Source: Filobasidium wieringae (Eukaryota; Basidiomycota; Tremellomycetes; Filobasidiales; Filobasidiaceae). Taken from it: 64,000 bases of DNA. The position numbers were made by a program, and so were the translations under genes. Each line of letters opens with the position of its first letter. The stretch's first letter is position 1. A model generated the notes under the pieces. It saw only the letters and a program-made list of their open reading frames with translations. It had not been told where the DNA came from and made no database searches. Below are positions 12,910-62,036 of the stretch, one piece after another. The stretch covers positions 558,001 through 622,000 of the forward strand of contig BCIV01000013.1 of assembly GCA_001600055.1 (NCBI GenBank), read 5' to 3'.

Positions 12910-15580
12910 ATGACTATCCCCACGGAAGAACAAATCCGGGATCCTCGAATCGGCGAGCTGCCCAAGCCCAAGATCAATGACCCTAAACACTTTACCTCCT
13001 TGATGGACATGCTCACAGAGGACGCCGAGGACCAGCCTCTAGATGAAGTCGAGGGCGAGGTCGGATCTGATGAGGATGATGGGAAAGCCGTAGCGGAGGG
13101 CGGGGAGGGCGCAGAGGGAAAGGCCAAGAAGAAAAAGAAGAAGAAGAAGAGTAAAGGTTCGAAAGCTGTCGACAAGCTGAGGTCAGTTTAGTCGCTCGTC
13201 GTGTGGTCCATGAACTGACGTTGTATTTCAAACAAAACTCACTCCTTCCTTTGAATGTTCAAATCCAATCATAACCTGGATCGTGCCCATCGCAGAGAAA
13301 CCCTGACCCCATCGGGAGCCGTCCCGGAGGAACTCGTAGATGCGGTCAAGAGGGAGATGAAGCAGAACCCGCAAGGTCCTCCCGGTCAGGTCGTAGACGA
13401 TGGCAAGTCCACTTCCGCCGCTGTTGGGGCAGGAAATGATGTTACGAGTTGCTTATCAAGTGATTTACGACGATTGTAGAGGAGATCAGGAAAGCTCTCA
13501 AAGCGATGGATCTGATCAAGATTTTGGAGGGGAAACAAGCATTGGGTAACAAGTCCAACACGAAGGATATCGGGGAACACAAGGTTCGTCCTCTTTCCGT
13601 TCACGCTTGCATCAGCTTCCACCCTTACTTTGTCCTCGTAGTTCTGGAAAACTCAACCAGTCCCACAAACCCTCAGTCAGAACCTAGCTCGAGCTTCGTC
13701 CTCGCAACAAGCTTCTTCTTCCTCCTCCTCGACTCTTACCGCAACGGTAGCGGAGGTCGAACAAGAAGAAGACGGTGCGATCGACAAGGTCAAGACGGTC
13801 GACGAGGTCAGGAAAGATCCGCTAGGGTTGCCTAGTGGGTATGAATGGGTCACGCCGGATATCCTGGACGATCAGCAGGTCAGTCTCTCGAGCATATTCG
13901 AGGCGGAGAACGGCAGTTGTTGATCAGTCGAAACACAGTGTAAAGAGGTTCAAACGCTTTTGTCAGAGAACTACGTCGAGGACGATGATGCTTCGTTCCG
14001 GTTACATTACTCCAAAGAATTCTTGCTCTGGTGAGTTGGCTCGAGCTCGTTTTCCTCGATCGCAAGTTTGGTCTCTGATGACTTGAACGACCCCGATCAC
14101 AGGGCATTAACGCCTCCTGGGTATATCGCGGATTGGCATGTCGGAGTAAGAGTATCGAGTAACAAGAAGTTGGTCGCCTTCATCTCGGGTATCCCACTTG
14201 ACACTCGAGTCCGAAAAAAGTGAGTACTACAACCATCCATCTGGAAAGCCAGCCCATTGACACCCGACCTCGACCTTTTGTAGCACCTTCACCGCGGCGG
14301 ATATCAACTTCCTCGTGGTACACAAGAAATTGAGGTCGAAACGACTTGCACCCGTCATGATCAAAGAGGTCACTCGACGGGTCAACATGAGGAACATATG
14401 GCAGGCGGTTTACACGGCTGGAGTCGTCCTGCCCACTCCTATTGGGGTCTGTCGGTAGGTCCCAAAAATGACAATCATAGAAGCGTAAAGGTGTTGAAAA
14501 GTTGAAGTCTCGCAGATACTACCACCGAACGCTCAACCCCGCAAAGTTGGTCGATATCGGTTTCACTCCCGTTCGAAGGGGTGATACCGTCTCCAAGATG
14601 GTACGACGATACGCGCTTCCCGCTAAACCGCTTCTCCCGAATTTCCGAGAGATGCAGAAAGAGGACGTGCCTCAGGTGTCGGCTCTCCTGAGCAAATATA
14701 TGGCTAGGTTCGAGCTGGAACAGAGGTTCGATCAGGAGAGCGAGATCGAACATTGGTTCATCAGTGGACGAGGAACGGGCGAGTACAAGGGCGGTAGAGG
14801 GAGAGAAAACCAGGTCGTTTGGTCGTACGTTGTGGAGGTGAGTTCCCCGACTGAAGCGCCGCCGCTAGACCTGAGTTAAGGACGATTGGGACTCCACACA
14901 GGATCCCGAGACTCGACAAATAACCGATTTCATGTCGTTCTACTCGCTCCCATCCCTCATCATGAGGCATCCCAAGCATTCCGATTTGGGAACCGCCTAT
15001 TCCTTCTACTATGCGACCGATGTTGCGCTCTCTCCATCCGGTAGCCAAGGAGGGGAGGAGATGCTCAAGGAGAAACTCGCGAGGAGGTTGAACGACTTGG
15101 TCAGGGATTGTATGATTGTTGCCAAGGATGTGAGTGGTACAAGAGTCGCCAGGTGGAACCATTTCTCTTATACCGGTTCCTGTGCAGGCCGGGTTTGATG
15201 TTTACAACGCATTGACCCTGATGGACAACAACCTGTTTTTGAACGAACAATTGGTAAGAAGCGTCTTATTAAGGGCTCTACCGCTCACTGCTGACGGTTC
15301 AACTTTTTCACAGTTCGGACCAGGAGATGGATACCTTGTAAGCATTCTGATCTTCTCCTCCTTACGCCGTCTGTCGCTAACCATAGACCGTTCACTTGTC
15401 CTTTCTCATCGTAATAGAACTGTAAGTTTACCTCACTTCACTTGTACCCTCGCAATGAACTGAATCTTTGTCCCACGCGCCATAGACTACCTATACAACT
15501 GGCGATCCGCACCAATTGACGGCGCTGCCGACGGTGTTAACGCTCAGAGGACGTCCAATATCGGTCTTGTAATGTTATAG
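12910..15580 (+). CDS. NMT1: Glycylpeptide N-tetradecanoyltransferase (N-myristoyltransferase)
   Basis: Transfers myristate from myristoyl-CoA to N-terminal glycines; cytosolic and known to be essential in Cryptococcus. Exons: 12910-13181, 13296-13402, 13480-13583, 13642-13878, 13939-14030, 14103-14219, 14284-14454, 14516-14837, 14902-15129, 15188-15253, 15314-15337, 15418-15421 and 15486-15580, totalling 613 codons with stop. Recognisable family blocks include KFWKTQPV, the AINFL-type strand ([15 protein letters not shown]), [41 protein letters not shown] and DGYLNYYLYNWR. The acidic, Lys-rich N-terminus ([13 protein letters not shown]) matches the ribosome-binding extension of NMTs. Intron 2 is GC-AG (donor GCAAGT at 13403). 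The twelfth exon is only four bases (AACT). Loss of either junction would break the conserved C-terminus. Confidence 0.96.
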
Positions 15581-15782: not shown

Positions 15783-17738
15783 TCAAAAGCACTCGTCGTC
15801 ATCCAGGACCAGCCCTGCCTCCAAGGCATCCTCCTGGTCCCATTCATCGTCCGAATCCACATACGGCGGATCCTCCTCCCCTACGTTTGGCCCGAACGCG
15901 TCGTCCACGATGAGACCGAGGACCAAACTCGGCGGCGTTCCTCGAGGTGGCGGGACAGGCAAGGTAGCCCGTGGAATGAGAGGCCGAGACTGTCCTATGT
16001 CAGGAGTAACGGTCGTCGTATCCTCCTCAGTTCCACCCTGCGCCAGAGCTTGCCCCCTTGCGAGCTCCACAGCGTCAGACTCCAGCAGCCTCATCCAGGC
16101 TAGGGAGTGTCTATGCTCCGACATAAGACTGTTGTAATCAGTCCGCAGCTTCTCATAGCACACCTCGCCCTCCTCTAGCTGCAGATTGAGAGTGGACAGT
16201 TCGCCCTCAAGGTCCCCGCTCTTAACCTTGAGGTCCACGATCTCCTCCTTTAGGACGACCGTCTCCTCGCTCAAGGCTCCGATGTCTTGCTCGAGAGCGG
16301 GAACCTGCGCCTCGAGCATTGTGGCCGCCTCCATCCGTTGGTCGCGAGAGGCAACCTCCTCCTTGAGGGCGCAGACTTCTTCTCTCAGGACATTAATGTC
16401 CCCCTCTAGAACGGACACGTGTTCTTCGAACATCGTATCCATCGAAGCCTGCTCTCCAGCCGTCTCGAGCAGTTCCCCCAACTGCTTCTCCGCCTCGAGA
16501 CGATGCCTCTCAGATTCTACCAACTTGCAGTTGGCATCGCCGAGCTCGGTCACGGCATCCGCCCATGCCAGGTCCGCCTTCTCTCTCTTCCTCTCCTCCT
16601 CCTCTGCCTTCAAACGAAGCCGATCTTCTCTGATCTTGCATGCAGCTTCAACCTCCCTCCTGTTGTTGAATTGCTGCATGAGATGCGTTCGTTTGTCAAG
16701 GAGGGTTTGCTTTTTGGCTTCGAACAGGTCGTCCCTCGCCTGAGCCAATTCCCTCCTCAGATCCTCGTTCTCCTTGACGAGGTCCCTGTTCCTCTCTCGG
16801 TCTTGAGAGGTAGACTGATCGAGCCGAGGTTGGTCGATAAGATCCTTCACAGGGACTGTCAAGGCCGCTAACCACTCTTTAGAACCGAACGGGAGAGTTC
16901 TAAAGAGGCTCGACCTCATGTACCCGCGCGAGCTGGCGGACTTGCTCGACCCGGCCGGTACGCGGCCGGGGGAAGCGCTCGCCGAGGGAGGAACCGGCGA
17001 GTAAGATCCTGTCTCTGTCCCTTGAGCGGGCTTGACGGAGGGCAGAAGAGCAGCTACCCTTGCTGCGAGGGAAGCCCTAGACGCCTTGGGCAGAGGCAAC
17101 ACCGTAGGGTTGACTTGGATCGGTCCAAGAGCTTCCCGCTTGGCTGGCTGCCTGGTAGCCTCGACGACCCGAAGACCTCCTTCGGAGATCCTCTTCAAGT
17201 CCCCGCTAGCTTTTCTCCGCCTCAGAGTAGGCTGGGGGGGAACCCGAATCCGGGTCTCGAGCGGAGAAGTGGAGGCCTTTACCTCCCGAGGATCGACCTT
17301 CTTTAACCCTTGTGCTTTGGTCGCAAGCACAGGGACCTTGCTCTTGGCCTTGAGAGCGGTGGCGATCGTTGGAGCCGCGATCCTTTTTACCAAGGTAGGT
17401 AAACGGGTAGGAATGAGGGCGGGAGCGGCGGGGACTGGAGCCGATCGGAAGAGGATCGGCTCACCTCGAGGGGTCTGGACTGGAAGTCCAGAGATGATAG
17501 GTACATGGGTACCTACAACCCTGGGGATCCGAGTCCTGATCTGGACCACCTTTCCAGGTAGTCCAGTGATGATCTGCTCCTTCTGAGCAGGTTTAGAGAG
17601 TCCCCTAGGAGGAGGAGGGGAGAAGACGACCATCTTGGTCGAAGAGGGAACGATGGCTGCCATCGTAGCAAAGGTGGTGCCAGCTTTGATAGCGGCGGTA
17701 GAGACGGAGGTAGAGGTGGAGATGGTGGTAGAGCTCAT
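15783..17738 (-). CDS. Coiled-coil protein, 651 aa, unknown function
   Basis: One uninterrupted coding frame from ATG 17738 to the stop at 15783. A longer open frame to 17807 exists, but the bases just upstream of 17738 form an intron acceptor (TTATAG at 17743-17748), so the ATG at 17738 is the first in the spliced transcript. Residues 1-290 are Pro/Ser/Thr/Lys-rich and probably disordered, with two related blocks (ITGLPGK and ISGLPVQ). Residues about 310-590 form a long charged coiled coil with heptad-like Leu/Glu/Lys. The tail is acidic and ends in DDDECF. No known domain was recognised. It is unusual that the CDS is intronless while the leader carries five introns. Confidence 0.75.
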   Translation of the reverse strand: MSSTTISTSTSVSTAAIKAGTTFATMAAIVPSSTKMVVFSPPPPRGLSKPAQKEQIITGLPGKVVQIRTRIPRVVGTHVPIISGLPVQTPRGEPILFRSAPVPAAPALIPTRLPTLVKRIAAPTIATALKAKSKVPVLATKAQGLKKVDPREVKASTSPLETRIRVPPQPTLRRRKASGDLKRISEGGLRVVEATRQPAKREALGPIQVNPTVLPLPKASRASLAARVAALLPSVKPAQGTETGSYSPVPPSASASPGRVPAGSSKSASSRGYMRSSLFRTLPFGSKEWLAALTVPVKDLIDQPRLDQSTSQDRERNRDLVKENEDLRRELAQARDDLFEAKKQTLLDKRTHLMQQFNNRREVEAACKIREDRLRLKAEEEERKREKADLAWADAVTELGDANCKLVESERHRLEAEKQLGELLETAGEQASMDTMFEEHVSVLEGDINVLREEVCALKEEVASRDQRMEAATMLEAQVPALEQDIGALSEETVVLKEEIVDLKVKSGDLEGELSTLNLQLEEGEVCYEKLRTDYNSLMSEHRHSLAWMRLLESDAVELARGQALAQGGTEEDTTTVTPDIGQSRPLIPRATLPVPPPRGTPPSLVLGLIVDDAFGPNVGEEDPPYVDSDDEWDQEDALEAGLVLDDDECF

Positions 17739-17741
17739 CTT

Positions 17742-18664
17742 TCTATAACGCGTAAACGAAAACAAAATAGGAGTAAGTCCCGGGTGCGACCGATAACGAT
17801 ACGTCATGAAGACCGATCGGAAAGCTGGACTTACGATATATTATGGGTTGTTGAGTGTTGAGTTGGAAGGGTAATGTTCAAGAGTGAATGAGATCGGTGG
17901 TTCCTGTAACAAGCGAACGATCAGTTACGTTTTGGATCGTGTTAGCGATCACGGACAGGCGAACGCGCGATGAGTGATGAGATGACTTACGAATGAACGA
18001 TTTGATTGGGAAGTAGACAGTTTCTGAGGGACGGTTGTTAGGCTCTAGAAGATTTTACTGCAATAAAGTGATGTGATCAGAAATCAAGGGGGATGTCAGG
18101 GATTTATGCATAGATCAGGAACAAGGACAAGACCAGCGAACGATCAATGGTGACAGTATCGAATTGGCAACTTACGTCTGCTAGAAAGCTGTTGAGTAAG
18201 ACGGAAGACAACTATGATACTACTTTTTAAGTAGTTGATGACTGTATGATATGGAGAGATTGTATAGAGTCGACAAGAAAAATCAGTTTTGATCTGGACT
18301 GATGGTTTCGATGATGAGGTACGGCTTACAGTTCAAGCTTGGAAGGAACGACTGGCAAGAAGATTTAGTCTTAGTTGCTTTGTTTAATTTGATCGACTGT
18401 TTATTATGAGGACCGATTGAATCAGTAACGAAGGCGAAATAAACAGTAGGTGGATGATCTGGACCGAACTGGGAAACTTACGTTGAATGCGATTTGAGCG
18501 TTTGATTGCGGTTGTTTGATCGAGTGTGTTGGTAAGGTTGGTTGTTTGCTTATGTGCGTTGATATCGAGTGTCGGTTATGTGACTGCGTTGGTTGAGAAG
18601 AAGGGAAAAAGGCGATGATGGTGGTTGAAGAGTAAAAGTGGTTGTTGGTCGATACTTTGTACTG
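17742..18664 (-). promoter_or_regulatory. 5' untranslated leader with five serial introns
   Basis: On the minus strand, five GTAAG donors pair with good CAG/TAG acceptors. Leader exons are 18482-about 18664, 18330-18396, 18176-18241, 17991-18057 and 17835-17903, and then the acceptor before the coding exon at 17742. The four internal exons are 67, 66, 67 and 69 bases; the five introns are 85-118 bases. None of the exon segments contains an ATG, whereas introns do (for example just before 17800). This is what a real spliced leader would show. The upstream edge of the first exon is uncertain. Confidence 0.7.
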
Positions 18665-18885
18665 CCACAGACTAAGCGAACGATTCGAAAGTGGAAACTG
18701 ATCAAACCATAGACTTGCCGCGAGCGATTGGATCTTACGTCACGCCATCCAACCCGGATCCGCTGCGTTAGGTAATCATGTTTTCTGGACTTGGTCATAT
18801 CCCAGGCTCGATTTCTTGAATTGATAATACGCTTGATAGATCTGATATCTGAGAATCCTTACACCGCAATCACAAAAGTAACAAC
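18665..18885. promoter_or_regulatory. Divergent promoter region, coiled-coil gene / SLT11
   Basis: This is the only space between the inferred first leader exon (-) and the SLT11 start (+), so both promoters should be here. No specific element is identified. Confidence 0.4.
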
Positions 18886-20456
18886 ATGCCCCCTAAACTC
18901 GATATCAACGTGCGTTGTCGTCCGAAGGGATTTCGGTAATCATGCTGATGTCTCCTATCACCTTTAGAAAGCTGGAGTGGAGAACTCCGATTTCCCAATC
19001 TTGTGAGCTGGTTATAGAACCAAGACGTCGGTAGAGTGGAAAGCTAATCGGAAGCTACTCTCAGGTGCGAAACATGTTTGGGAGATAACCCTTACGTGCG
19101 AATGGTAAGCTACCCTATACCAGCTAAAAGGCTCAGTATTGATGATTTTGTTCGCTCGGACATTAGAGCAAGCAAGAGTATGGAAAGGAGTGCAAGGTGA
19201 GTCCAACTCGATAGCCCCGAATATTTGCTCTTCAACATTTGCTAACTTATTGACAACCTTGTTCTTTGGGTCGAACAGATCTGTATTAGACCATTCACCG
19301 TATTCCGATGGAACCCCGGTTCAGGTGCTCGATTCAAGAAGACCGAAATCTGTACGACCTGTGCAAAGATCAAGAACGTCTGTCAGACTTGTTTGTTGGA
19401 TTTGTGAGTCGTTGCATGCAAATAAAGGTAGGGAAGATCGCGTGCTAAATGTGAGGTTGCCCATGTAGAGAGTACGGATTGCCAACTCAAGTCAGAGATG
19501 CGGCGTTGGGACGGGTCAACACCGCCCCTACCTCCGACATTAACAAACGTACGTCCTTCGTAGTCTATCCGTAACGTAGTTTCCCCACGCAATAACGTCA
19601 CCATATGTCATAGAATACTACACCCAGGTGATGGAGCAACAAATGGCAAACACCTCATCAGGACAAATGGCCGATACCCACGACGCTCAACTCGCCACCT
19701 CGGCCGCTAAAGAAATGTTGAAGAACCTCGCTCGAAACGACCCGCATTACAAACGAAACAGACCGCATTTATGTAGTTTCTTCGTCAAGGGGGAGTGTAA
19801 GAGGGGGAGCGAATGTCCCTTCAGGTTAGTTTCCGTCAAGGATATCTATCTCCTTCCCCTGATCAATCAGCTAATAAGACGTTCCTCTGAGATCAGACAC
19901 GAGGTACCGGATGACAAGGAAGGGTTGCAGAAACAGAACATGCAGGATCGATATTACGGTCGAAACGACCCCGTAGCGAAAAAGATCCTAAAGGAGCATT
20001 CAGAGAGTAAAGGACTTGTCGCTCCGGAAGATCAAAGCATTGTAAGTGACATGTGGCTTACTTTACAAGTGGAGAACTAACAGGTCCGTTTTGGTAGACC
20101 ACGTTGTTGTTCTTGACGCTACCTGTTTGTCAGGAGGAGGATGTGAGGGTAGCCCTCATGAGTCACTGTCCATTCATCCAGCCTGCTCAAGTGAAGAATA
20201 TCACGGTCGTAGCAGCAAGCCGTACGTCCACTCTGACGGCTTGGACAGTATCGAGGTCGCTGATACTATTGCTCTTTCCACAGACTGTGCTTTCGTGAAT
20301 TTCAACAGTCGAGCGGCAGCAGAGCGAGTAGCCGATGCTCTGACGGTACAAGGCGGGATCGAAGTGCTCGGGAAGCGAGGAAAGGTCGTATGGGGCCGTG
20401 CTCGACCGGCCAAGAAGGTCGCTCCTGCTGCGGTACCTGCGGCTGTAGCAGCTTGA
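18886..20456 (+). CDS. SLT11: Pre-mRNA-splicing factor SLT11/ECM2 (RBM22-like)
   Basis: Ten exons: 18886-18909, 18968-19002, 19065-19104, 19167-19196, 19279-19403, 19469-19548, 19614-19824, 19897-20041, 20098-20221 and 20284-20456; 329 codons with stop. The N-terminus has the paired zinc-ribbon cysteines of this family ([43 protein letters not shown]). The middle has a CCCH finger (C-x7-C-x5-C-x3-H within [13 protein letters not shown]...), and the C-terminus an RRM with the RNP-1-like CAFVNFNSR. The family contacts U6 snRNA in the activated spliceosome. The C-terminal tail is Ala/Val-rich and short. Four of the exons are 40 bases or less, which is notable for a splicing factor's own gene. 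Confidence 0.93.
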
Positions 20457-20551: not shown

Positions 20552-23500
20552 TTAGCGGTAAAGGATTTCCTCTTCGTCCGCATGAGTGAGTCGTGGTTGT
20601 GACAAGAAGGATTGGACTCCAAAGAGAGTTTTAGCGGTCTTGAGGAGCTGTCGAGTCCAAGATCAACACCTGGACTGAGGCGAGTGATAGGTAATTGACT
20701 CACATCTTCCACAGTATGACACAACTGAGTCAGCGCCTCTCGCTCGGCAAATGCATACAATATAGCCAGCTCGGGACTCGTCATCCGCTCAGCAGCATCT
20801 ACGCTGTTCCTGACACTGGGAGAGCGAGAGCGTGAAGGTGATCGAAGATCTTGGAGATGCTCTTCGGCTGCTCTAGCCCAATTGTTCACGGCCTCAACAG
20901 GCGATGCCAAAAATTGCGGCAGCGGCGTTCGAGAGCGTGCGGCATGCGCAACCGCAAAAAGGATGACATAGACTGAAGAGACCTATGCCACGAAATCCAA
21001 AAAAAAGGTTAGCAAGCACAGCTTAGACTCACGAAATCAGCCCGACTTACAAGATTCTGCCGTAACGGCAACACATCGAGTACGGTCTCCCTTCGAGGTA
21101 TACCCTGCCTGATGTTTCGAATCTCCACGAGGAGACCAAAGACCTTAGCTAGATCATTGTTCAGTTGAGCGTGCAATAGGTGAGGCTTCGGTAGAAGCGA
21201 GAGTTCCAGTTGCTGAATTGTCGCCAAAGATCGACACTGACCGATTCCGATCTGGGAAGCCATCCATCTGATTAGTATTAGCCACAAGTCATGATATAAT
21301 AAGACTCCGACCGATGCTTGCCTCGATACTCCTCTCGAGACCGGCGTACTGGTCGCCTTCCGCACGATTTACCAAGGAGGGTCGTAAATTCTCTCTGTAA
21401 ATAAGTTTAGCAACCTGAGTGAATCGTCAGGACATCTAAGCACACATACCGACTCATGGCCAAATCTACAGAGATCCAGTTATGAGAATTATGAGTGAGT
21501 GCTTTGATAATATGACAAAGACAGACTTACATAGATCTCCAAGCGAATCCAGTGTTTTGGCAACAACTTTGTGGTATCGTGTGCGCGCATGATATGGGAA
21601 AATGAACATGTTGACCAAGAAAGCAGCAACGATTCTGAAACCAGAGGCGATCAGCTGGGCTGTGCATACCGACTAACCCGTCTTGCTTACCCAATGGTAA
21701 TTTGACAGGCGCGCCACAGGGCGACAATGATGACTCCAGAGTATGAGTCGCGTTGGAGGTAAGGGATAAATAGAACAGATGGTAGTGTAATTCCTCTGCG
21801 TCATCAAAGATAATCAGTTGATTAAATGGCAGGGTTTTGATGGCAGGAGACTTACGCAACGATACCAATTCCAGGAAACGAGGAGAACAACATGATCCAG
21901 GCAATCGGGATACTCGCAAGGGTAGCTATCGCGGTTAGTCCATAGGCATTACCTCTTGCAATTATGTAACCCTGAGTATCCTGGTTAGGGACATCATACT
22001 GAATCTAACCACGTCATCTACTTACGACGTAAGCGAAGATAGCTCCTCCAACAGTCCCAATGACACGCCAAATACCAACTCGGAAGGTGGCTCCCGTGGT
22101 CACGTCCAGTACGTACATGCTACGAACGGGGGTCGTTGCTCAAATTTTTTCATCACTGCTCTTCAAGGTAATATGGCTTACTAGCTGATGACGGACTGTC
22201 ATGTCGCATGGATTAGTGAACGAGGTCTAGAACGAAGACAGCAAGGCAGAACTTACCCATTGACCTCGAGCGCTCTGGAAATAACGTCTAGCTATTTCAC
22301 AAGTGGATAATAAGTCGATGAAGAGGCGCCTTGGTCCACCTGACTTACAACTACTGCCTAGCGGAAGCAAACCTGGTAGAGCTAAAAGCATAACGCCCAA
22401 GGCCAATTTGAGAGCATATTGAACGTGCCTAGAACTCTTGATCCCTGATAGCCATTTGGACAGCTTGATACGGTCTAGCATGCAACGGATAAATAGCGGA
22501 AACTTTATGGAACCCGTTACAAACTCACTCGACAGTGTTCGTTCTGATTCCCACCATTTCATCCACGTGATCTTTAACCGAACGATCGGATTGCCGATAG
22601 AACGCCTTCGACGAGTCTCTGACTTTTCCTTGATAGCTGTGTTGCCATAATTCATTTCTCCCGACTGACTGCGTTGATGCGAGATGGTTCTGGCTAAACG
22701 TTCTTCGTGCTCTGTTGCTTCTCGGCTATCTTCCTGCTCTTCCGAGTCTTCCCGCTCAGCTTCTAAATACGCAGTTGCATTTAGGGACCACTACCGTATA
22801 TCGTTCCATGCATAGAGTACACTCACCTGTAATTTCTTGGTGCCAACGGTCTGATTGCAGACCAGCCTGCAGACTACCACGTTCCAACCAGGCTAGATCG
22901 AATAGAGGAAAGTAGAATCTCTTCATTTGAAGCTTGAAATGAGGACTAGTCCGGTCTTGCGCAGCGTTCTGGAGAAGCTCTTTCGTGGCAGAACATAGGA
23001 CATTGACGTCTTTGGCAAGCTGAAAAATCGTTTATCAGCGAGTGATTACGGCCGGTAGTTGGCCGAGAGACATACATCAAGCATTGCAACGAGCCAAGCA
23101 GCAGCCTTAACCCTTTCTTTATGAGCATCATCCATGTTTCTCTTCGGACCTGGCATTGAGTCTTCAACAATCTCTCTCTCGGTTGCATCATCTCCCTTAA
23201 AACCCCGTCTACCTCTGACTTTGTCACGTTTGAATAGCATCCTGGCGATGTCACGGCTAGACATATCCTTCATCTCTCTTTCCGTGATCTCTCTTCCACG
23301 AGCAGGACATCCAAAGAATCCAGTTTCCAGCCAAGCCAAAAGATCGTGCTCATACGTCCACACTGCATTCAGCAAGGATTCCTGAAATTGCTCCAATCGT
23401 CTTCTTGGATCCCGTTCCTGACTGCCGAGTACATCTTTCTCGAAACGATTGTTCCGTTTGACCATAACGTAGTTCTGCCAGAACCCTAGCAGTCCTCCGA

Positions 23501-24984
23501 GGTGCTGACGGCCAGGACTATCGTCTTGGTGCCAATCATACGCTTCTCTGATCCCACGTAAAGATTCTTCCAACCCGGTCGCGATCAATCGTCTTAACTC
23601 TCTTAGACTGCCCTCTAATCGATCTTTCCCCTTTCCATGGCTCTGTTCAAAGACCCGCTCACCATCCCCTAGATCCGTCGTGGTAGTACTCTTCGCGAGT
23701 CCTTTCACGATTGGATTTCTTCCGATGTGAGTATAAAGAATGGTGAGAATTGGCCTAAGTCGACGAGTGGACATGGGGTCGTAAGTGATTCCGTGCAAAG
23801 CGATAGAGTACTGTTCTCGTATCAACGGCAGCAGCGTAACCAAAGGACGAAAAGATATCTTCTTGATCTGTGTCGTATCCGAGCTGACTTTCTGCTTCTC
23901 CTGGTTTGAAGCGGTGTTATCGCCTTGGTTTCCGGTACTTTCCGAAGGAGAACTATCTTCCTCCACGACGGTCTCCGCGTTGGACCATTGAGCCGTTTCT
24001 TCTTCCCCTCTTTCGTCGTCCACTCCGTCCGGACCATCAAGTCCACCAGCCTCCATTGCCATTTCCGTTCTCCCATGTACCGAATCTATCCTCGACGGAA
24101 CTCGGAGGATCTGCTGTTTCCCTTTAACGCCTTCAGCAAGACCTTTCAGACCCTCTCCTAGGATATCATTGAGCCGTTTCCGTTCGGGAGGAAGGATTGA
24201 GTGACCAATAATAAGACTAAGGATCGAGATAATCGCTGACCACAAGGTCGGATAGAACAAGAGAAGGAAGTGGGATGAATTGACCTGGATTTCGTTTATG
24301 AGCCAACTTCAGACGACGAAAGATACATGAATCGTTCTTACATCTTCAATTTGACTGGCATTGACAAGACTCCATACACTATGGAAAACCAGGATCCTCG
24401 AGGCATTGACCAGTCTTGGCGAAGTTGACCTGATCCAACCAGCTAAAAACGGCTTACAAATTAATACCTTGTGTCGTGAAAAACGTTCCTCAGGGACTTA
24501 CCAAACAGAGACACTATCAACAATCCGACAGAGCAAACAAATCTTGCTCCAACGGTCTCTCTGGCAATATCTCCTGTTATAGGATCGAATCGATCTGATT
24601 GTCCTTGCAGATGCCTATTACAGAGTACGGCGAAATATAAGAAGAGATTGGAATATGCTAAAGCGATGACTCCTCCTAGCAGACAGAGAGCTATATACAA
24701 GACATGAAAGCACCAGGTCAGATGTCCATGCACCTTTTCTACTTGGATGGGAATAGCTCACCGCTGCTCTCGATCAAGGCACTCAGGGTTCCAGCCGGAT
24801 AGAAATACAAGAATTGTAACGTCGAGACGAGGAAGGCGAATTCCTGCGAAAGGTCCGCTATAGGTCGTACGACAATGAAGACGCATGCTACTAGAGCTGC
24901 AATTGTTGGTGGAAGTAGAGCTGCTACTAAGCTTCGAGAGGGTATCAGGCCGCCTGAATGGAGGCGAGCGATTATTCTATTCAT
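20552..24984 (-). CDS. FUSC/ArAE_2-type (DUF2421, brefeldin A sensitivity-related) membrane protein
   Basis: Large multi-exon gene with start ATG at 24984 and stop at 20552. It encodes roughly 1050-1150 residues in many exons; the longest is about 23070-24260. An N-terminal cluster of membrane segments (LLPPTIAALVACVFIVVRPI, then GGVIALAYSNLFLYFAVLC) precedes a long cytosolic part with acidic/Ser-rich linkers. A second cluster (ALKLALGVMLLALPGLLPLG, YVLDVTTGATFRVG, IPIAWIMLFSSF) precedes a cytosolic C-terminal domain ending in ADEEEILYR. This two-halves arrangement is that of the fungal ArAE_2/FUSC family, whose members relate to aromatic-acid exporters and aluminium-activated malate transporters. 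Substrate unknown. Exon limits are not all resolved; the last intron joins TVED to LLKTAKTLFG. Confidence 0.8.
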
Positions 24985-56523: not shown

Positions 56524-57966
56524 ATGGCCTTACAAACAAGGAGACGTCTCCAACAAACACAAGAAATATTAAACGAGCTTCCTTTCAACAATACCACAAT
56601 GGCTGAACACTATTCACAGTTACCGCTACCGCCATCCCAATCCGAATCAGCACAAACCGCATCAGAGAGGGCACCATCAGATCGAAAGCCCCCCTATTTC
56701 AATATGCCAAGCCCAATCATAGGTACAATCAGATCGCCTGAACCCCGTACTACGCCAGGAGCAAAAGAATGGGGAAGAGACACCGAATCGGCGGGACGAC
56801 CGGCTTACATGGGAAAAAGGGACCAAGGTTATGGGGTACGACCACAACAATACTACAAAAATCAGCCCTACCCAGGTTATGGTCCTCCACCTCATAACCC
56901 GGCAAACTTCATGTTCAACAGAGAAAGAGAACAGCTGGGAAGAGGGTTCCACAACCATGAAGAACAGCGTCAGGACAGGGACTCACGAACTATACCACCA
57001 ATGGGGTCATATGCGGCAGTACCGGGGTTCTACCCCTATCCAACGGGAGGACCACCTCAACCGGGGGTGTACCGTAACTACAAACAGCCAATGGACCTCG
57101 CAACAATGCGCATGATCAACGACATTAAGAAGAGCTTCCTCGGAGAGCCCCCTATCTTCAGCGGACTAGCCGAACAAAACGTGGGGGACTGATTGGTCAC
57201 AGTCGAAGATCAGCTCTTAAGGTGGGGTATTACGGACGATAGGTACAAACTCGCACTGGCCACGGGATTACTATCGGGTAACGCAATGGCGTTATTCAGG
57301 ACCTGGACGGCGCAAGAAAGGGTGGATTGGCCTTCGTTTGTTGGGCGTATGAAAGGCTCGTTTAGTAGGCCGGCATCCTGGTTAACGGACAGAATGGAGC
57401 TTTGCAGTCTCAGACAGAGCTCCGGAACTGTCCACTCGTACTTGGACAACTTCAACAGGGCGTCCAACAGAATGACCCTAGGTCTATTGGAGGAGTTCAA
57501 GGCTATGGCGTTCCTTATGGGGCTTAGGCAGGCCATCAGAAACAAGGTGGTCAGTCGAGCGTCATTGAGGTCGGATAAGCCCGTATACATGTTCCAAGAC
57601 GTCGTGGATCTGGCGTTACAAGTGCAGTCGGTGTCTCCGCAGGCAGCAGCCCCTATCAGTCTTCCACCGGTACAGTCATCGAGGGCTAAAGGAAGACAGC
57701 CGATCAGTCTACACGTCACGGAGGAAGTTACGGACGATTACGAGCTTCCGGACAGTCCGGAGGCGGAGGATGAGCTTTTCGCGTTGGACGGGAAGAACAC
57801 CTTCCGGACAAGGGATCCTAGGGCCAAACCAATTCATGAGCCGTGTCCGTCATGTGGGAAAACAGGACACAAGGAAGACACGTGCATACAGAAGATGTCC
57901 AGGGATCTAGCGGAAATGAGACTACTCTTCCAGTCTAAGCAGGGAAAAGACGCAGGGTCCCAGTAA
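56524..57966 (+). pseudogene. Retrotransposon gag, split by one in-frame TGA at 57190
   Basis: A frame of 481 codons from ATG 56524 to TAA 57964-57966, open except for TGA at 57190-57192. The N-terminal part is Pro/Gln/Gly/Arg-rich. After the TGA the frame continues at once with capsid-like sequence (retrotransposon gag helices around DRMELCSLRQ). A single C-x2-C-x4-H-x4-C zinc knuckle (CPSCGKTGHKEDTC) follows near 57842. The interruption sits at a position where gag proteins of this group commonly have an aromatic residue. It may be a recent point mutation in this copy, a sequencing error, or read through. Confidence 0.85.
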
Positions 57967-60900
57967 ATGGCGTACTCGGACCCAGCATTAAACCTCAGCC
58001 ACCGCCGGATAGGCGAGTACGTTTTGCGGAGCCAGCTGGAAAAGAAGAGAAGGAAAACAAATCCCGTGTAGAGTGGTCACCGGAGCCGTCAGCGGGCTTC
58101 GGTGTTGTGGGGGTCGGGGGGCGCACAGCCTCCCGTCCGGAAGTGGTACGTTCAGTTTCCACAGCTTTGCCCAGAGGGGAACCAGCTCTAGATACCGCTG
58201 ATCAATGTTTAATACGTGATCACGGTTCAGAGTATGGTGGCAAAGTCAAAAACGTACTCCTCGATCTTAATGAAATCACTACAAACCCAGAACACATGTT
58301 CAACCAAACAGCCATTATCAATGGCAGCTCTGCCAAAGGCCTGTTGGACACGGGCTCTGGGGGTGATTTCGTTAGTGAATCTTGGGTACAACAAAACGAC
58401 ATCCCTCTACAGGATAGGGATACGTTTCAAATCAGGACCGCAGCGGGGGACATAGTCCGTCAAGGCAAACAAGCTCGGGTTATCCTGCAAACCAACACCA
58501 TCACAACCGAGCTGGTCCTCAAGGTCATACCACTCTCTTCGTACGACTTCATCCTTGGGCGTCCGTTTATTTCGGAACATGTCAGTCAAATAGACATGCG
58601 TTCAAAAACCATCACATACCGGGACGACATCCCCAAGAACAACCCCTTGCTGAAGGGTGACAAAATCGAGATCGTAACGCAACAGGAAATGGAGCGCATT
58701 ATCAACGACCAATCTGGTACCAACGACGTAGGCTTCGTTCACATATATCCTTCCAACGAAGAGGCGTATGACGTATGCGAAGTGGGCGACCCCGGGTTTC
58801 CATCCAAATTCGAAGGACCGGTACCGGGTTCGGTACAGGCCCAGGTCATCATCCAGCCGCAGAACCTGGCAAAAGGATCCTTTGGCACCGGGATGCAAGC
58901 AGTACTCGATAGGTATAGGGACCGCTTCAGAAAAGGTGTTCCACGGCCGGCACTGCCAACGGAAAATGATACAGCACAAGGAACAGCGGTGTCTTCTTCG
59001 TTACTGCAAACGGGGGATGCGCTTCCGCGTCGGGCCGTACCAAGGCCTATGTCTCCGGCTGTACTAGCAGAGTTGAAAGCGCAATTAGTACCCCTTCTGG
59101 ACAAAGGTTTCATACGTCCCTCGCGCTCGCCGTGGAGTTTGGCTGCGTTATTCGTAAAGAAGAAGGACGGATCATTCCGCATGTGTATCGATTACCGTGC
59201 TGTAAACGCAGTCACGCAGAAGGATTCTCACCCCTTGCCCCGTATTACGGAATGCCTGGACCAGTTGGGACGAGCCAAGGTCTTTAGCAAGATCGATTTA
59301 AGTTCTGGCTATCACCAAATACCGCTAGTACCGAACCAGTGCGCCAAGACGGCGTTCGTATGTAGGTACGGCCAGTTTGAGTGGACGGTCATGCCTTTTG
59401 GCTTAACCAACGCTCCGGGAGTCTTTCAACGGCATATGCAGCAGGTATTGGGTGACGCGGTCGATAAGTATGTCGTAGTATACCTGGATGACATACTGAT
59501 CTACTCGGAGTCTATGGAGGAGCACCTACAGCATGTTAACACGGTACTAGGGAGATTGAGGGATGCAGGCCTATGGCTCCACCCCAACAAGAGCGCTTTC
59601 GGCGCAGAGGGGATGGAGTTCGTGCGCCACTGGGTTTCTAAGGACGGAGTTCATGTACTGCAAGATAAGGTACAAGCGGTCAAGGAATGGCCAAGACCTG
59701 AGACAGTGCATGACGTGCGTTCTTTCTTGGGACTGGCTGGTTACTACCGAAGGTTCGGTAAACAGTTCGCAGCCACAACCGCGGTGCTGTATAACCTAAC
59801 TAAGGGCTCACGACGGCGCAACGACAACGTGGCGTGGACACCGGAGTGCGAAGCGGCGTTTGTACGCACAAAGGGAGAACTTTGTGAAGTGCCTGTGTTA
59901 GTACCTTTAAACGCGGAACTGCCGTTGCGAGTACGATGTGACGCATCCGGCCAGGCCATTGGAGGGGAGCTACAACAACTATGCAATGGAGAGTGGCACC
60001 CAGTAGCTTTCGAATCAAGGAAGCTCTCAGCCGCGGAGTTGAATTACCCCACACCCGAAAAGGAGTTACTCGCTATTATTTATTGCTGGAATAAGTGGGA
60101 ACATTATTTGAACGGTGCCAAGGATGTAACCATACAAAGTGACCACCATCCTCTACAGTTCTTACAAGGCAAAAAGAAGATTCCTGCTCGACTGGAAAGA
60201 TGGTTAGATTCCCTAGCGCTAATCACAGCAAAGATACAGTATCAGTCAGGGGAGACAATGACCGTGCCTGATTTACTATCAAGGCGGGCGGATTACATAC
60301 CATTGAACGAGGTATCAGTATCCCACGGGTTTCTACTAACAGATTGGCCGCTACTTGTCGGCAAGGACATCACAGCGAACAACGACTACCCCCCTAAAGC
60401 GGTGGAACTAGCGTTAACCAATAGGCGCTGGTTCCTCATCGCTGGAGGAGAACCCGTATTCCTGGAGGATAACGGGGTAGAACAAAGTCCTTTCATACGT
60501 TTCGTTGAGAGGGGGGATCTACTCGATATCTTACACAAGGATTTCGGCCATCAATCCGAGAAGGGTATGTTAAGTCTATTACACGGCCGAGGATGGTGGG
60601 TAGAGCACATCAAAGACGTGGAATCGTACATCAGAAGTTGTCCAGAATGCCAGGCGTACGGACGATCAAAAGGAAACCAGAACGTGGAACCAGCCAGGTC
60701 ACTACCGACCATCTCCAAACCGTTCTCAAGGTGGGGAATGGACTTCATAGACATGGGCAAATCTTTCACGGGCCATAAGTGGATTCTCACAATGATCGAT
60801 CATGCTACGGGTTGGGTAGAAGCGGTCGCCATGAAAACAGCCACTAAGGAACGGGTGGCGGACGTTATTTATGACTATATCGTAACTAACTACGGGGCTC

Positions 60901-62036
60901 CCGACGAGATCTTAACGGACAGAGGAGCCAACTTCCTTTCCTCCTACGTTACGGAGTTCATCAAACTCATGGACACCAAACGACTACGTACAGCCGCATA
61001 TCACCCACGGTCAAATGGGAAGACGGAGCGGCTAAACGGTATCCTTGAATCATTCATATTCCAAATGAATGATGGGGACAAAAGGGACTGGCCTAAGTAT
61101 CTTAGACCGGCTCTATTTGCAGTACGTACGAGGACCCACTCAACCACGGGCTGGTCACCATTCGAGCTAGTATACGGGGTCAAGCCAAAGCTACCTCTAG
61201 ACCAGCCGGACCTCTTCGCACCCTACATCCACGCACCTACATCAACGGAGCACCAGCAGCGAATACAGTCCCTGAAAGAAAAGCGGGACTTAGCGGCGGA
61301 ATCATCCAGGGTACAGAACGTAGTGGACGCAAGGAGGAGGGATCAGAACCTCGCAGCGAAGGAGTACGCAGCGGGTGATCTGGTCTGGGTATGGAACGAA
61401 CAACGTTTCAAAGGGGAAACTGCATGGTACGGCATGTACGTCGTAGTGAAAAGACTCGACCTCGGCGCATACATACTAGCGGAGCCCAGCGGCAAGGAAT
61501 TAGACGTACCAATAAACGCAAATCGTCTAAAGACAGCCGTTAGCCGTACAGGAAGCGCAGTAGCCGTATCGCACCCTAAACCCTCCAAAGAGAAGACCAA
61601 AGCGGGAGATGCAAGAGCAGAAGTAAGGCGTAGGGAAAACGCAAAACGTACGGAAGAGAGAAAGGGGGCCAAGGCCAGTATGGGAGCGGCGACGAAAACC
61701 GCGCAAACAACGTCGGGCGAAGGTATAGCTAGCGGGCCAATGGGCAGTGTGGGAGCGGCGACGAAAACCGCGCAAACAACGTCACATAAAGGTATAGCTA
61801 GCGGGCCAATGGGCAGTATGGGGACGGAGACGCAAACCGCACAAACAACGTCAGGCGGAAGTATGACTAGTGGGCCAACGGGCAGTATGGGAGCGGCAAA
61901 GACCACCGCGCAAACAACGTCTAGTACGGTGAGCGGTACTCCTACAGACCCTCCAACTAAAGTAGCCAGTAGAGGCGTCGAGGGGAACAAAACAATCACC
62001 CTACGTTTCAAACGACCACCCATAGCGCAAGCTTAA
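57939..62036 (+). CDS. Retrotransposon pol polyprotein (PR-RT-RH-IN)
   Basis: Frame -1 to gag, open from 57939 to TAA 62034-62036 (1365 codons). It has no ATG close to its start, consistent with expression by frameshifting. Domains in order: aspartic protease with LLDTGSGGDF (about 58343), reverse transcriptase with SKIDLSSGYHQI and the YLDD box (about 59478), RNase H with RCDASGQAIGG, integrase HHCC zinc module (H at FGHQSEKG to C at SCPECQ), and a catalytic D-D-E (GMDFID, LTDRGANF, NGKTERLNG). After integrase there is a GPY/F-like module (AWYGMYVVVKR), then a low-complexity tail with 23-residue repeats. No chromodomain was seen. All catalytic residues looked for are present. Confidence 0.96.
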   Translation, partial: AGKRRRVPVNGVLGPSIKPQPPPDRRVRFAEPAGKEEKENKSRVEWSPEPSAGFGVVGVGGRTASRPEVVRSVSTALPRGEPALDTADQCLIRDHGSEYGGKVKNVLLDLNEITTNPEHMFNQTAIINGSSAKGLLDTGSGGDFVSESWVQQNDIPLQDRDTFQIRTAAGDIVRQGKQARVILQTNTITTELVLKVIPLSSYDFILGRPFISEHVSQIDMRSKTITYRDDIPKNNPLLKGDKIEIVTQQEMERIINDQSGTNDVGFVHIYPSNEEAYDVCEVGDPGFPSKFEGPVPGSVQAQVIIQPQNLAKGSFGTGMQAVLDRYRDRFRKGVPRPALPTENDTAQGTAVSSSLLQTGDALPRRAVPRPMSPAVLAELKAQLVPLLDKGFIRPSRSPWSLAALFVKKKDGSFRMCIDYRAVNAVTQKDSHPLPRITECLDQLGRAKVFSKIDLSSGYHQIPLVPNQCAKTAFVCRYGQFEWTVMPFGLTNAPGVFQRHMQQVLGDAVDKYVVVYLDDILIYSESMEEHLQHVNTVLGRLRDAGLWLHPNKSAFGAEGMEFVRHWVSKDGVHVLQDKVQAVKEWPRPETVHDVRSFLGLAGYYRRFGKQFAATTAVLYNLTKGSRRRNDNVAWTPECEAAFVRTKGELCEVPVLVPLNAELPLRVRCDASGQAIGGELQQLCNGEWHPVAFESRKLSAAELNYPTPEKELLAIIYCWNKWEHYLNGAKDVTIQSDHHPLQFLQGKKKIPARLERWLDSLALITAKIQYQSGETMTVPDLLSRRADYIPLNEVSVSHGFLLTDWPLLVGKDITANNDYPPKAVELALTNRRWFLIAGGEPVFLEDNGVEQSPFIRFVERGDLLDILHKDFGHQSEKGMLSLLHGRGWWVEHIKDVESYIRSCPECQAYGRSKGNQNVEPARSLPTISKPFSRWGMDFIDMGKSFTGHKWILTMIDHATGWVEAVAMKTATKERVADVIYDYIVTNYGAPDEILTDRGANFLSSYVTEFIKLMDTKRLRTAAYHPRSNGKTERLNGILESFIFQMNDGDKRDWPKYLRPALFAVRTRTHSTTGWSPFELVYGVKPKLPLDQPDLFAPYIHAPTSTEHQQRIQSLKEKRDLAAESSRVQNVVDARRRDQNLAAKEYAAGDLVWVWNEQRFKGETAWYGMYVVVKRLDLGAYILAEPSGKELDVPINANRLKTAVSRTGSAVAVSHPKPSKEKTKAGDARAEVRRRENAKRTEERKGAKASMGAATKTAQTTSGEGIASGPMGSVGAATKTAQTTSHKGIASGPMGSMGTETQTAQTTSGGSMTSGPTGSMGAAKTTAQTTSSTVSGTPTDPPTKVASRGVEGNKTITLRFKRPPIAQA
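57942..57948 (+). promoter_or_regulatory. Probable -1 ribosomal frameshift site GGGAAAA
   Basis: G GGA AAA in the gag frame fits the X-XXY-YYZ rule. It lies between the last stop in the pol frame (57936-57938) and the gag stop (57964-57966), so it is inside the only window in which a -1 shift could join gag to pol. Downstream structure was not computed. Confidence 0.8.
61681..61920 (+). repeat. 69-bp tandem repeats in the pol C-terminal tail, about 3.5 copies
   Basis: Units begin near 61681, 61750, 61819 and 61888, exactly 69 bases apart, so each adds 23 residues in frame. The protein core is [AE]TKTAQTTS followed by a GIASGPMGS-type segment. Copies 1 and 2 are almost identical, and later ones diverge. 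Confidence 0.95.

What the first reader, a model, noticed from the sequence alone, without database searches (positions are those of the whole stretch)
17742..18664. Serial five-intron leader in front of an intronless coiled-coil gene
Five GTAAG donors on the minus strand pair with strong acceptors to give four internal untranslated exons of 67, 66, 67 and 69 bases, all without ATG, separated by introns of 85-118 bases. In an otherwise intron-dense genome the 651-codon CDS has none. Near-equal exon size suggests segment duplication or a selected architecture (intron-mediated enhancement, alternative leaders, or nuclear retention control).
Basis: partly seen in the sequence, partly recalled or inferred. 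Interest (0 to 1): 0.75.

Follow-up and report, generated by a model that had tools for sequence, protein, structure and literature searches.

The report
Five-intron leader, intronless fungal gene
A fungal gene whose protein-coding part has no introns is preceded by an untranslated stretch that looks cut by five ordinary introns, an unusual arrangement that may help the gene make stable messenger RNA in a genome rich in introns.

Summary
On the minus strand, 18660-17743 carries five GTAAG donors, each with a branch-like site and a first-AG acceptor, giving introns of 85, 88, 118, 87 and 92 nt and ATG-free exons of 67, 66, 67 and 69 nt. A splice model trained on 414 predicted coding introns of the same genome puts four of the five at or above the 81st percentile and the fifth at the 43rd. 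As a chain the leader ranks first of 77 upstream regions; 0 of 1000 shuffles reach it; none of 14 further genes has more than two. A and T content supports the boundaries without using splice signals. The 651-codon CDS has no intron where about 7.3 would be expected. Exons and introns are not recognisable copies of each other. Best reading: a single-coding-exon gene with untranslated introns ('uiSEG'), whose leader supplies introns needed for mRNA accumulation. That function is inferred by analogy with Cryptococcus; no transcript and no related-species DNA could be examined. The CDS is also rich in perfect hairpins. An extreme member of a known kind.

The parts
18482..18660 (-). leader exon 1 (untranslated, about 179 nt; 5' end inferred from the start of the A/C-rich, G-poor stretch)
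   Evidence: A 0.36, C 0.36, G 0.07; no ATG
18397..18481 (-). leader intron 1, 85 nt; GTAAGT, branch TACTGAT (branch A at 18422), ACAG
   Evidence: total 10.68, 92nd percentile of 414 predicted CDS introns
18330..18396 (-). leader exon 2, 67 nt
18242..18329 (-). leader intron 2, 88 nt; GTAAGC, branch AACTGAT (branch A at 18283, 42 nt from the exon), ACAG
   Evidence: 9.72, 81st percentile
18176..18241 (-). leader exon 3, 66 nt
18058..18175 (-). leader intron 3, 118 nt; GTAAGT, branch TTCTGAT (branch A at 18077), GCAG; holds an out-of-frame ATG at 18111
   Evidence: 10.13, 87th percentile; the alternative acceptor 18045 scores 10.15; for the ATG
17991..18057 (-). leader exon 4, 67 nt (54 nt if acceptor 18045 is used)
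17904..17990 (-). leader intron 4, 87 nt; GTAAGT, branch AACTGAT (branch A at 17921), ACAG
   Evidence: 11.33, 97th percentile
17835..17903 (-). leader exon 5, 69 nt
17743..17834 (-). leader intron 5, 92 nt; GTAAGT, branch GACTTAC (branch A at 17774), ATAG; ends 4 nt before the start codon; holds an in-frame ATG at 17807
   Evidence: 7.76, 43rd percentile; retention would add 23 residues
15783..17738 (-). intronless CDS, 651 aa: disordered N-terminal half, long coiled coil, acidic C-terminus
   Evidence: gene model starts at the same ATG; AlphaFold2 helices at 310-315, 334-487, 493-589, 658-663 of the 674-aa form, residues 1-307 below pLDDT 50; the relative P0001 is 93% identical
18661..18885 (.). 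about 225 bp between this leader and the start codon of the divergent gene (18886, +), whose protein looks like Slt11/RBM22 (name recalled from its sequence, not searched)
   Evidence: gene model; translation

Best explanation
A single-coding-exon gene, with no second copy found, of an intron-dense fungus (probably a basidiomycete), whose roughly 450-nt 5' untranslated leader is cut by five ordinary spliceosomal introns. Shown by sequence: five introns with genome-typical signals, an ATG-free spliced leader, an uninterrupted ORF kept in a close relative. Inferred: the introns are spliced, and their co-transcriptional removal marks the transcript for nuclear stability, export and translation, so that the leader supplies the intron number (5, against a mean of 5.4 per gene model) that a normal gene carries in its CDS. 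Retention of introns 1, 2 or 4 would add no upstream ATG, retention of 3 adds an 18-codon uORF, and retention of 5 adds 23 residues in frame, so splicing may also tune output; that is the less certain half.
For: Splice signals; chain rank 1 of 77 and 0 of 1000 shuffles; at most 2 among 14 further genes; A and T contrast at the boundaries; 3.74 introns per kb of CDS, 7.3 expected in this CDS and none present; the introns are longer (85-118 nt) than the CDS median of 65, as reported for UTR introns of Cryptococcus (118.3 nt, leader and 3' UTR together; PMC7049704, passages). In C. neoformans, removing introns greatly lowers mRNA of most tested genes, cumulatively, with Pab2, Xrn2 and Rrp44 involved (PMC3744415, abstract and passages). 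An Rrp44-like S1 domain is encoded in this genome. ORF conserved in P0001, 660 aa, 93% in the alignment.
Against: No RNA evidence at all. The same paper found a gene (UXS1) expressed without introns, and two external introns of CAS3 that lower mRNA, so leader introns need not help. The 'quota' idea rests on one gene: the 7 other gene models with at most two coding exons (some of them partial) have 2, 1, 1, 1, 1, 1 and 0 candidate introns upstream, no trend. Whether the relative has the same leader could not be seen. Kinship of this fungus to Cryptococcus is inferred from intron features, not tested.
Confidence: 0.55

Rival explanations
1. The five introns are real but neutral: UTR introns turn over fast, and this leader has drifted to five without a function.
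For: In C. neoformans half of 5' UTR introns are lost or differ in position between two varieties, while 99.5% of CDS introns keep their position (PMC5851062, part 1 of 3 read; PMC5006051, passages).
Against: Five is far out in the sample (1 of 77 regions), signals are above the CDS median for four of five, and the CDS has none of the seven expected.
Confidence: 0.25
2. A regulated leader: alternative splicing or retention switches expression, for example intron 5 retention gives an N-terminally extended, basic, possibly organelle-targeted form, and intron 3 retention a uORF.
For: In-frame ATG at 17807 open to the CDS, 23 residues with net charge +5; the unspliced leader holds 2 ATGs where 7.3 are expected (P 0.008) and its introns 2 where 6.2 are expected (P 0.02), while 405 predicted CDS introns hold 432 where 491 are expected; UTR introns are retained more often than ORF introns in C. 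neoformans (PMC5006051).
Against: The 17807 ATG has a poor context (GTCTTCATG); the metagenome ORF P0001 begins at the shorter Met, though that is weak; by my estimate, not computed, an in-frame open stretch of 23 codons is not rare by chance.
Confidence: 0.12
3. Two overlapping units: a spliced noncoding RNA from the shared promoter, and a separate promoter close to the CDS; leader introns 1-4 are not part of the coding mRNA.
For: Divergent arrangement with about 225 bp to the neighbour; continuity between exon 5 and the CDS rests on intron 5 alone, the weakest intron.
Against: Intron 5 ends 4 nt before the ATG and links the array to the CDS; no Rfam family reaches its gathering score here, which does not exclude an undescribed RNA.
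Confidence: 0.06
4. The exon-intron units arose by tandem duplication of a unit of about 155 bp.
For: Donor spacing 152, 154, 185, 156; near-equal exons; 10- to 12-mers shared between introns 1 and 2 and between introns 3 and 4; exon+intron units have mean z 1.12, with pairs 2-3 and 3-4 at 2.60 and 2.39.
Against: Exons mean z -0.25 and intron cores 0.08; the unit score includes shared splice signals; Tandem Repeats Finder reports no array of this period, only a 15-bp one of period 7 in the leader.
Confidence: 0.05

Closest known systems
uiSEG: single-exon coding gene with untranslated-region introns (term of Jorquera et al. 2018 as quoted in PMC8302217, passages)
   Same: One coding exon, introns only in the untranslated part
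   Different: Five leader introns, in a genome with about 5.4 introns per gene model; leader introns of fungi are few (1204 constitutive 5' UTR introns against 35,822 in ORFs in C. neoformans var. neoformans)
Cryptococcus genes with transcript-leader introns (887 genes with one or more, PMC7049704), and intron-dependent mRNA accumulation (PMC3744415)
   Same: Short introns, similar density (3.35 per kb there; 3.74 here), longer introns in untranslated parts
   Different: Nearly all genes there have introns, mostly in the CDS; here all are in the leader; dependence on introns not shown here
Intronless mammalian coding exons behind untranslated exons, such as olfactory receptor genes (recalled; only a search listing seen)
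   Same: Intronless CDS behind spliced untranslated exons
   Different: Unrelated protein and lineage
Retrogenes that gain introns or regulatory regions (PMC3565874, PMC2413143; search listing and abstract starts only)
   Same: Intronless CDS, possible acquisition of a spliced leader
   Different: No parent gene found in this genome

Membership tests
uiSEG | CDS in one exon | tested here: met
   Open ORF of 651 codons; gene model has one exon; relative P0001 is one 660-aa ORF
uiSEG | introns in the untranslated region of the same transcript | tested here: inconclusive
   Strong predicted introns but no transcript data
uiSEG | nuclear, functional protein-coding gene | tested here: inconclusive
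   On a 742,298-bp contig between gene models of 13 and 10 exons; protein 93% identical in one metagenome relative; no expression data
Intron-dependent expression (Pab2/Xrn2/Rrp44) | loss of mRNA when introns are removed, partly restored by loss of Pab2 | not testable with these tools
   Needs alleles and RNA; only an Rrp44-like domain was looked for and found
Retrogene | intron-bearing parent in the genome | tested here: not met
   Six-frame search of the genome at E up to 10 finds only the locus itself (3 candidates scored); a lost or very diverged parent is not excluded
snoRNA or other structured RNA host leader | known RNA family inside the introns | tested here: not met
   No family at gathering score in the leader; the two matches at E 0.29 and 0.32 lie outside it
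Tandemly duplicated exon array | sequence similarity among units beyond chance | tested here: not met
   Mean z -0.25 exons, 0.08 introns; units 1.12 with signals included; ancient duplication not excluded

The most novel reading that the evidence does not exclude
A displaced intron quota: in a fungus where mRNA survival depends on the number of introns, an intronless and strongly folded CDS is licensed by a dedicated splicing array in its leader, with five regularly spaced introns, about the gene average, and promoter-shared 10-mers inside the introns. If so, the leader is a portable stability module for intronless genes.
Probability: 0.2. Interest if true: 0.7.

Novelty: new member of a known kind. 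Interest (0 to 1): 0.42.

Why it matters
It would be a natural test case for a question raised by work in Cryptococcus: whether introns count by number or by position for mRNA survival. Here all predicted introns lie in untranslated sequence and the whole CDS is intron-free, so the two effects are separated by nature, and the leader could be moved as a block in front of other intronless genes.

Tried and rejected
Retrogene origin: no second copy found. Mobile or repeated leader: one match, itself (that search skips simple repeats and very common words). Known structured RNA in the introns: none. Recent tandem duplication: no similarity among exons or among introns on average. Donor spacing as a genome-wide hallmark: the pattern GTAAG-N145-175-GTAAG-N145-175-GTAAG has 50 matches, fewer than its reversed control (69), and four of the 50 overlap one neighbouring gene with introns in its CDS, so spacing alone says nothing. 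Protein function: no Pfam family above cut-off (best E 0.093), no PDB relative (best E 0.51), no prokaryotic relative confirmed among 73 pattern matches, one relative in two protein searches in which only the 7995 and 7998 candidates sharing most words were scored; the model is disordered plus coiled coil (mean pLDDT 52.4), so no fold search was run. The first version of the gene finder diverged and was discarded; the second converged. Its models are unverified; the two other 'single-exon' predictions look like pieces of longer genes (my reading), so 3 of 77 is an upper figure.

Papers: PMC3744415, PMC5006051, PMC7049704, PMC8302217, PMC8770142 and PMC7904048 were seen as passages, PMC5851062 as part 1 of 3; all others only in search listings. 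Searches touching multi-intron fungal leaders or single-exon genes listed no paper that I recognised, by title and abstract start, as describing this architecture; most lists were cut (20 of 42, 12 of 138, 10 of 33, 10 of 18 and 10 of 50), one search was listed in full (18) and held none.

Full report
What is there. The window is part of a 19.76-Mb genome in 33 contigs, fungal by its genes and introns. On the minus strand an ORF at 17738-15783 encodes 651 residues, and about 920 bp of leader sequence precede it. Five GTAAG donors (18481, 18329, 18175, 17990, 17834) pair with acceptors ending at 18397, 18242, 18058, 17904 and 17743. The introns are 85, 88, 118, 87 and 92 nt; the internal exons 67, 66, 67 and 69 nt; the spliced leader 452 nt including four bases of exon 6, without ATG. 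In all five introns the chosen acceptor is the first AG after the branch site (my reading of the sequence).

Are the introns credible? I joined 200 kb of neighbouring contig with the window and trained a simple gene finder on the 264 kb without outside annotation. It settled on 77 gene models with 414 introns, donor GTRAGT, branch CTGAY, acceptor YAG, median intron 65 nt and median internal exon 119 nt; introns average 65 nt in Cryptococcus (PMC5851062). It started this CDS at 17738 with one exon, and none of its introns lies in the leader. Against those 414 introns the five leader introns fall at the 92nd, 81st, 87th, 97th and 43rd percentiles. Scored as chains over up to 1000 nt upstream of each of 77 start codons, this leader has 5 introns and a score of 15.8; the next region scores 8.8 with 3; one other region has a chain of 4 that scores 3.3. 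In antisense the best chain (14.8, 4 introns) is this same leader read from the divergent neighbour; the next are 8.5 with 3 introns, 6.7 with 3 and 6.4 with 4. Shorter chains are no commoner in sense than in antisense (summed scores 157.5 and 148.5). Of 1000 dinucleotide shuffles of the leader none reaches 15.8 (maximum 8.0). In 50 kb of another contig none of 14 gene models has more than 2 in sense. A test that ignores the splice signals agrees in part: exons are richer in A and poorer in T than introns, and only 1.8% (A) and 1.2% (T) of circular shifts of the mask do as well when exon 1 is left out; G gives 10.7% and C shows no contrast.

How odd is it? Intron density is 3.74 per kb of CDS, so 7.3 introns would be expected in 1956 nt, and there are none; gene models average 5.4 introns. 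Near-equal exon sizes have P 4.5e-5 for four exons drawn from 340 internal coding exons, or 5e-4 if drawn only from exons of 30-120 nt, and 0 of 160 consecutive quadruples in the sample match. This was chosen after the fact, and acceptor 18045 would break it. Donor spacing alone is not special genome-wide. On average the units show no sequence kinship. Two 10-mers recur: ATCGTTCGCT at 18684 (upstream of exon 1), 18144 (intron 3) and 17921 (intron 4), and GTCCAGATCA in introns 1 and 2 and in the CDS. Spaced triples of a 10-mer occur in 18 of 1040 half-overlapping 1200-nt windows; eight of the 18 hold four or more and, where printed, look like repeats, and at least two of the 18 are this locus. 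ATCGTTCGCTT occurs 25 times in the genome, two of them here; its reversed control occurs 9 times. This is weak evidence for shared cis elements.

The protein. No family above cut-off and no structure match; one relative, 93% identical in the alignment with gaps of two to four residues, while a helicase exon of the same window has 7992 matches at E up to 1e-20. Both searches score a capped candidate list, so more distant relatives may exist. The model shows a disordered first half and a long coiled coil. No second copy was found in the genome.

What it most likely does. In C. neoformans most tested genes lose mRNA when introns are removed, in a cumulative way, with Pab2 and Xrn2 in one route and Rrp44 in another (PMC3744415), though one gene did not need introns and two CAS3 introns act negatively. 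UTR introns there are less conserved and more often retained (PMC5006051). By analogy the leader most likely provides the introns that this intron-free CDS lacks. This step is inference. Drift of fast-turning UTR introns is the main rival. A regulatory leader is possible: the unspliced leader has 2 ATGs where 7.3 are expected, introns 1, 2 and 4 can be retained without an upstream ATG, intron 3 retention gives an 18-codon uORF and intron 5 retention a 23-residue in-frame extension. HUSH silencing of intronless transgenes in human cells (PMC8770142, passages) shows that intron content can matter at the chromatin level, but short introns protected little or not at all there. This genome encodes a Piwi domain, so RNAi surveillance cannot be ruled out either.

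A second oddity. The CDS holds 11 perfect hairpins of at least 7 bp, where synonymous codon shuffles give 2.6 on average and never more than 7 in 300. Its hairpin density is the highest of 57 CDS of at least 900 nt (5.6 per kb, mean 1.0), but by observed/expected ratio it is not first: two CDS with 4 and 2 hairpins rank above its 3.8 and another with 2 equals it. In windowed folding it is third of 57 (z -4.1), behind the retroelement model and a gene with a 3229-nt exon that reads like an RGS-domain protein (the name is my reading). Whether this is linked to the leader is unknown.

Verdict.

Noticed in passing
15783-17738: CDS rich in perfect hairpins (11 of at least 7 bp; 2.6 expected under synonymous shuffling), including an 11-bp stem at 16907-16875.
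   Followed up: partly
18557-18575 and 18892-18910: 19-nt inverted repeat (89% complementary, 14 exact) that places the same sense-strand motif in exon 1 of this gene and at the first exon/donor of the divergent Slt11/RBM22-like gene; it is the only exact 14-mer inverted pair within 400 nt in 131 windows of 2 kb.
   Followed up: partly
18684, 18144, 17921 (-): ATCGTTCGCT upstream of exon 1 and in introns 3 and 4; GTCCAGATCA in introns 1, 2 and the CDS.
   Followed up: partly
21289-24062 (-): Neighbouring gene model with GTAAG at 22348, 22181, 22025, 21855, 21690 and 21530, about every 160 nt (one more at 22256), within its coding part.
   Followed up: partly
L004:237-563 (G000:C13:368237-368563) and similar matches on C3, C4, C10, C19, C22: Repeated stretch that begins with GTAAGTTCAAAGTTCAAA; in L004, the only copy I read, it ends in TGCATAG inside apparent coding sequence. 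Looks like an intron of a multicopy transposon-like gene.
   Followed up: partly
57394-62036 (+): Ty3-type retroelement with a long pol-like ORF (58296-62036), by reading its translation; observed only.
   Followed up: no
12910-15572 (+): Convergent neighbour that reads like N-myristoyltransferase (name recalled from the translation).
   Followed up: no
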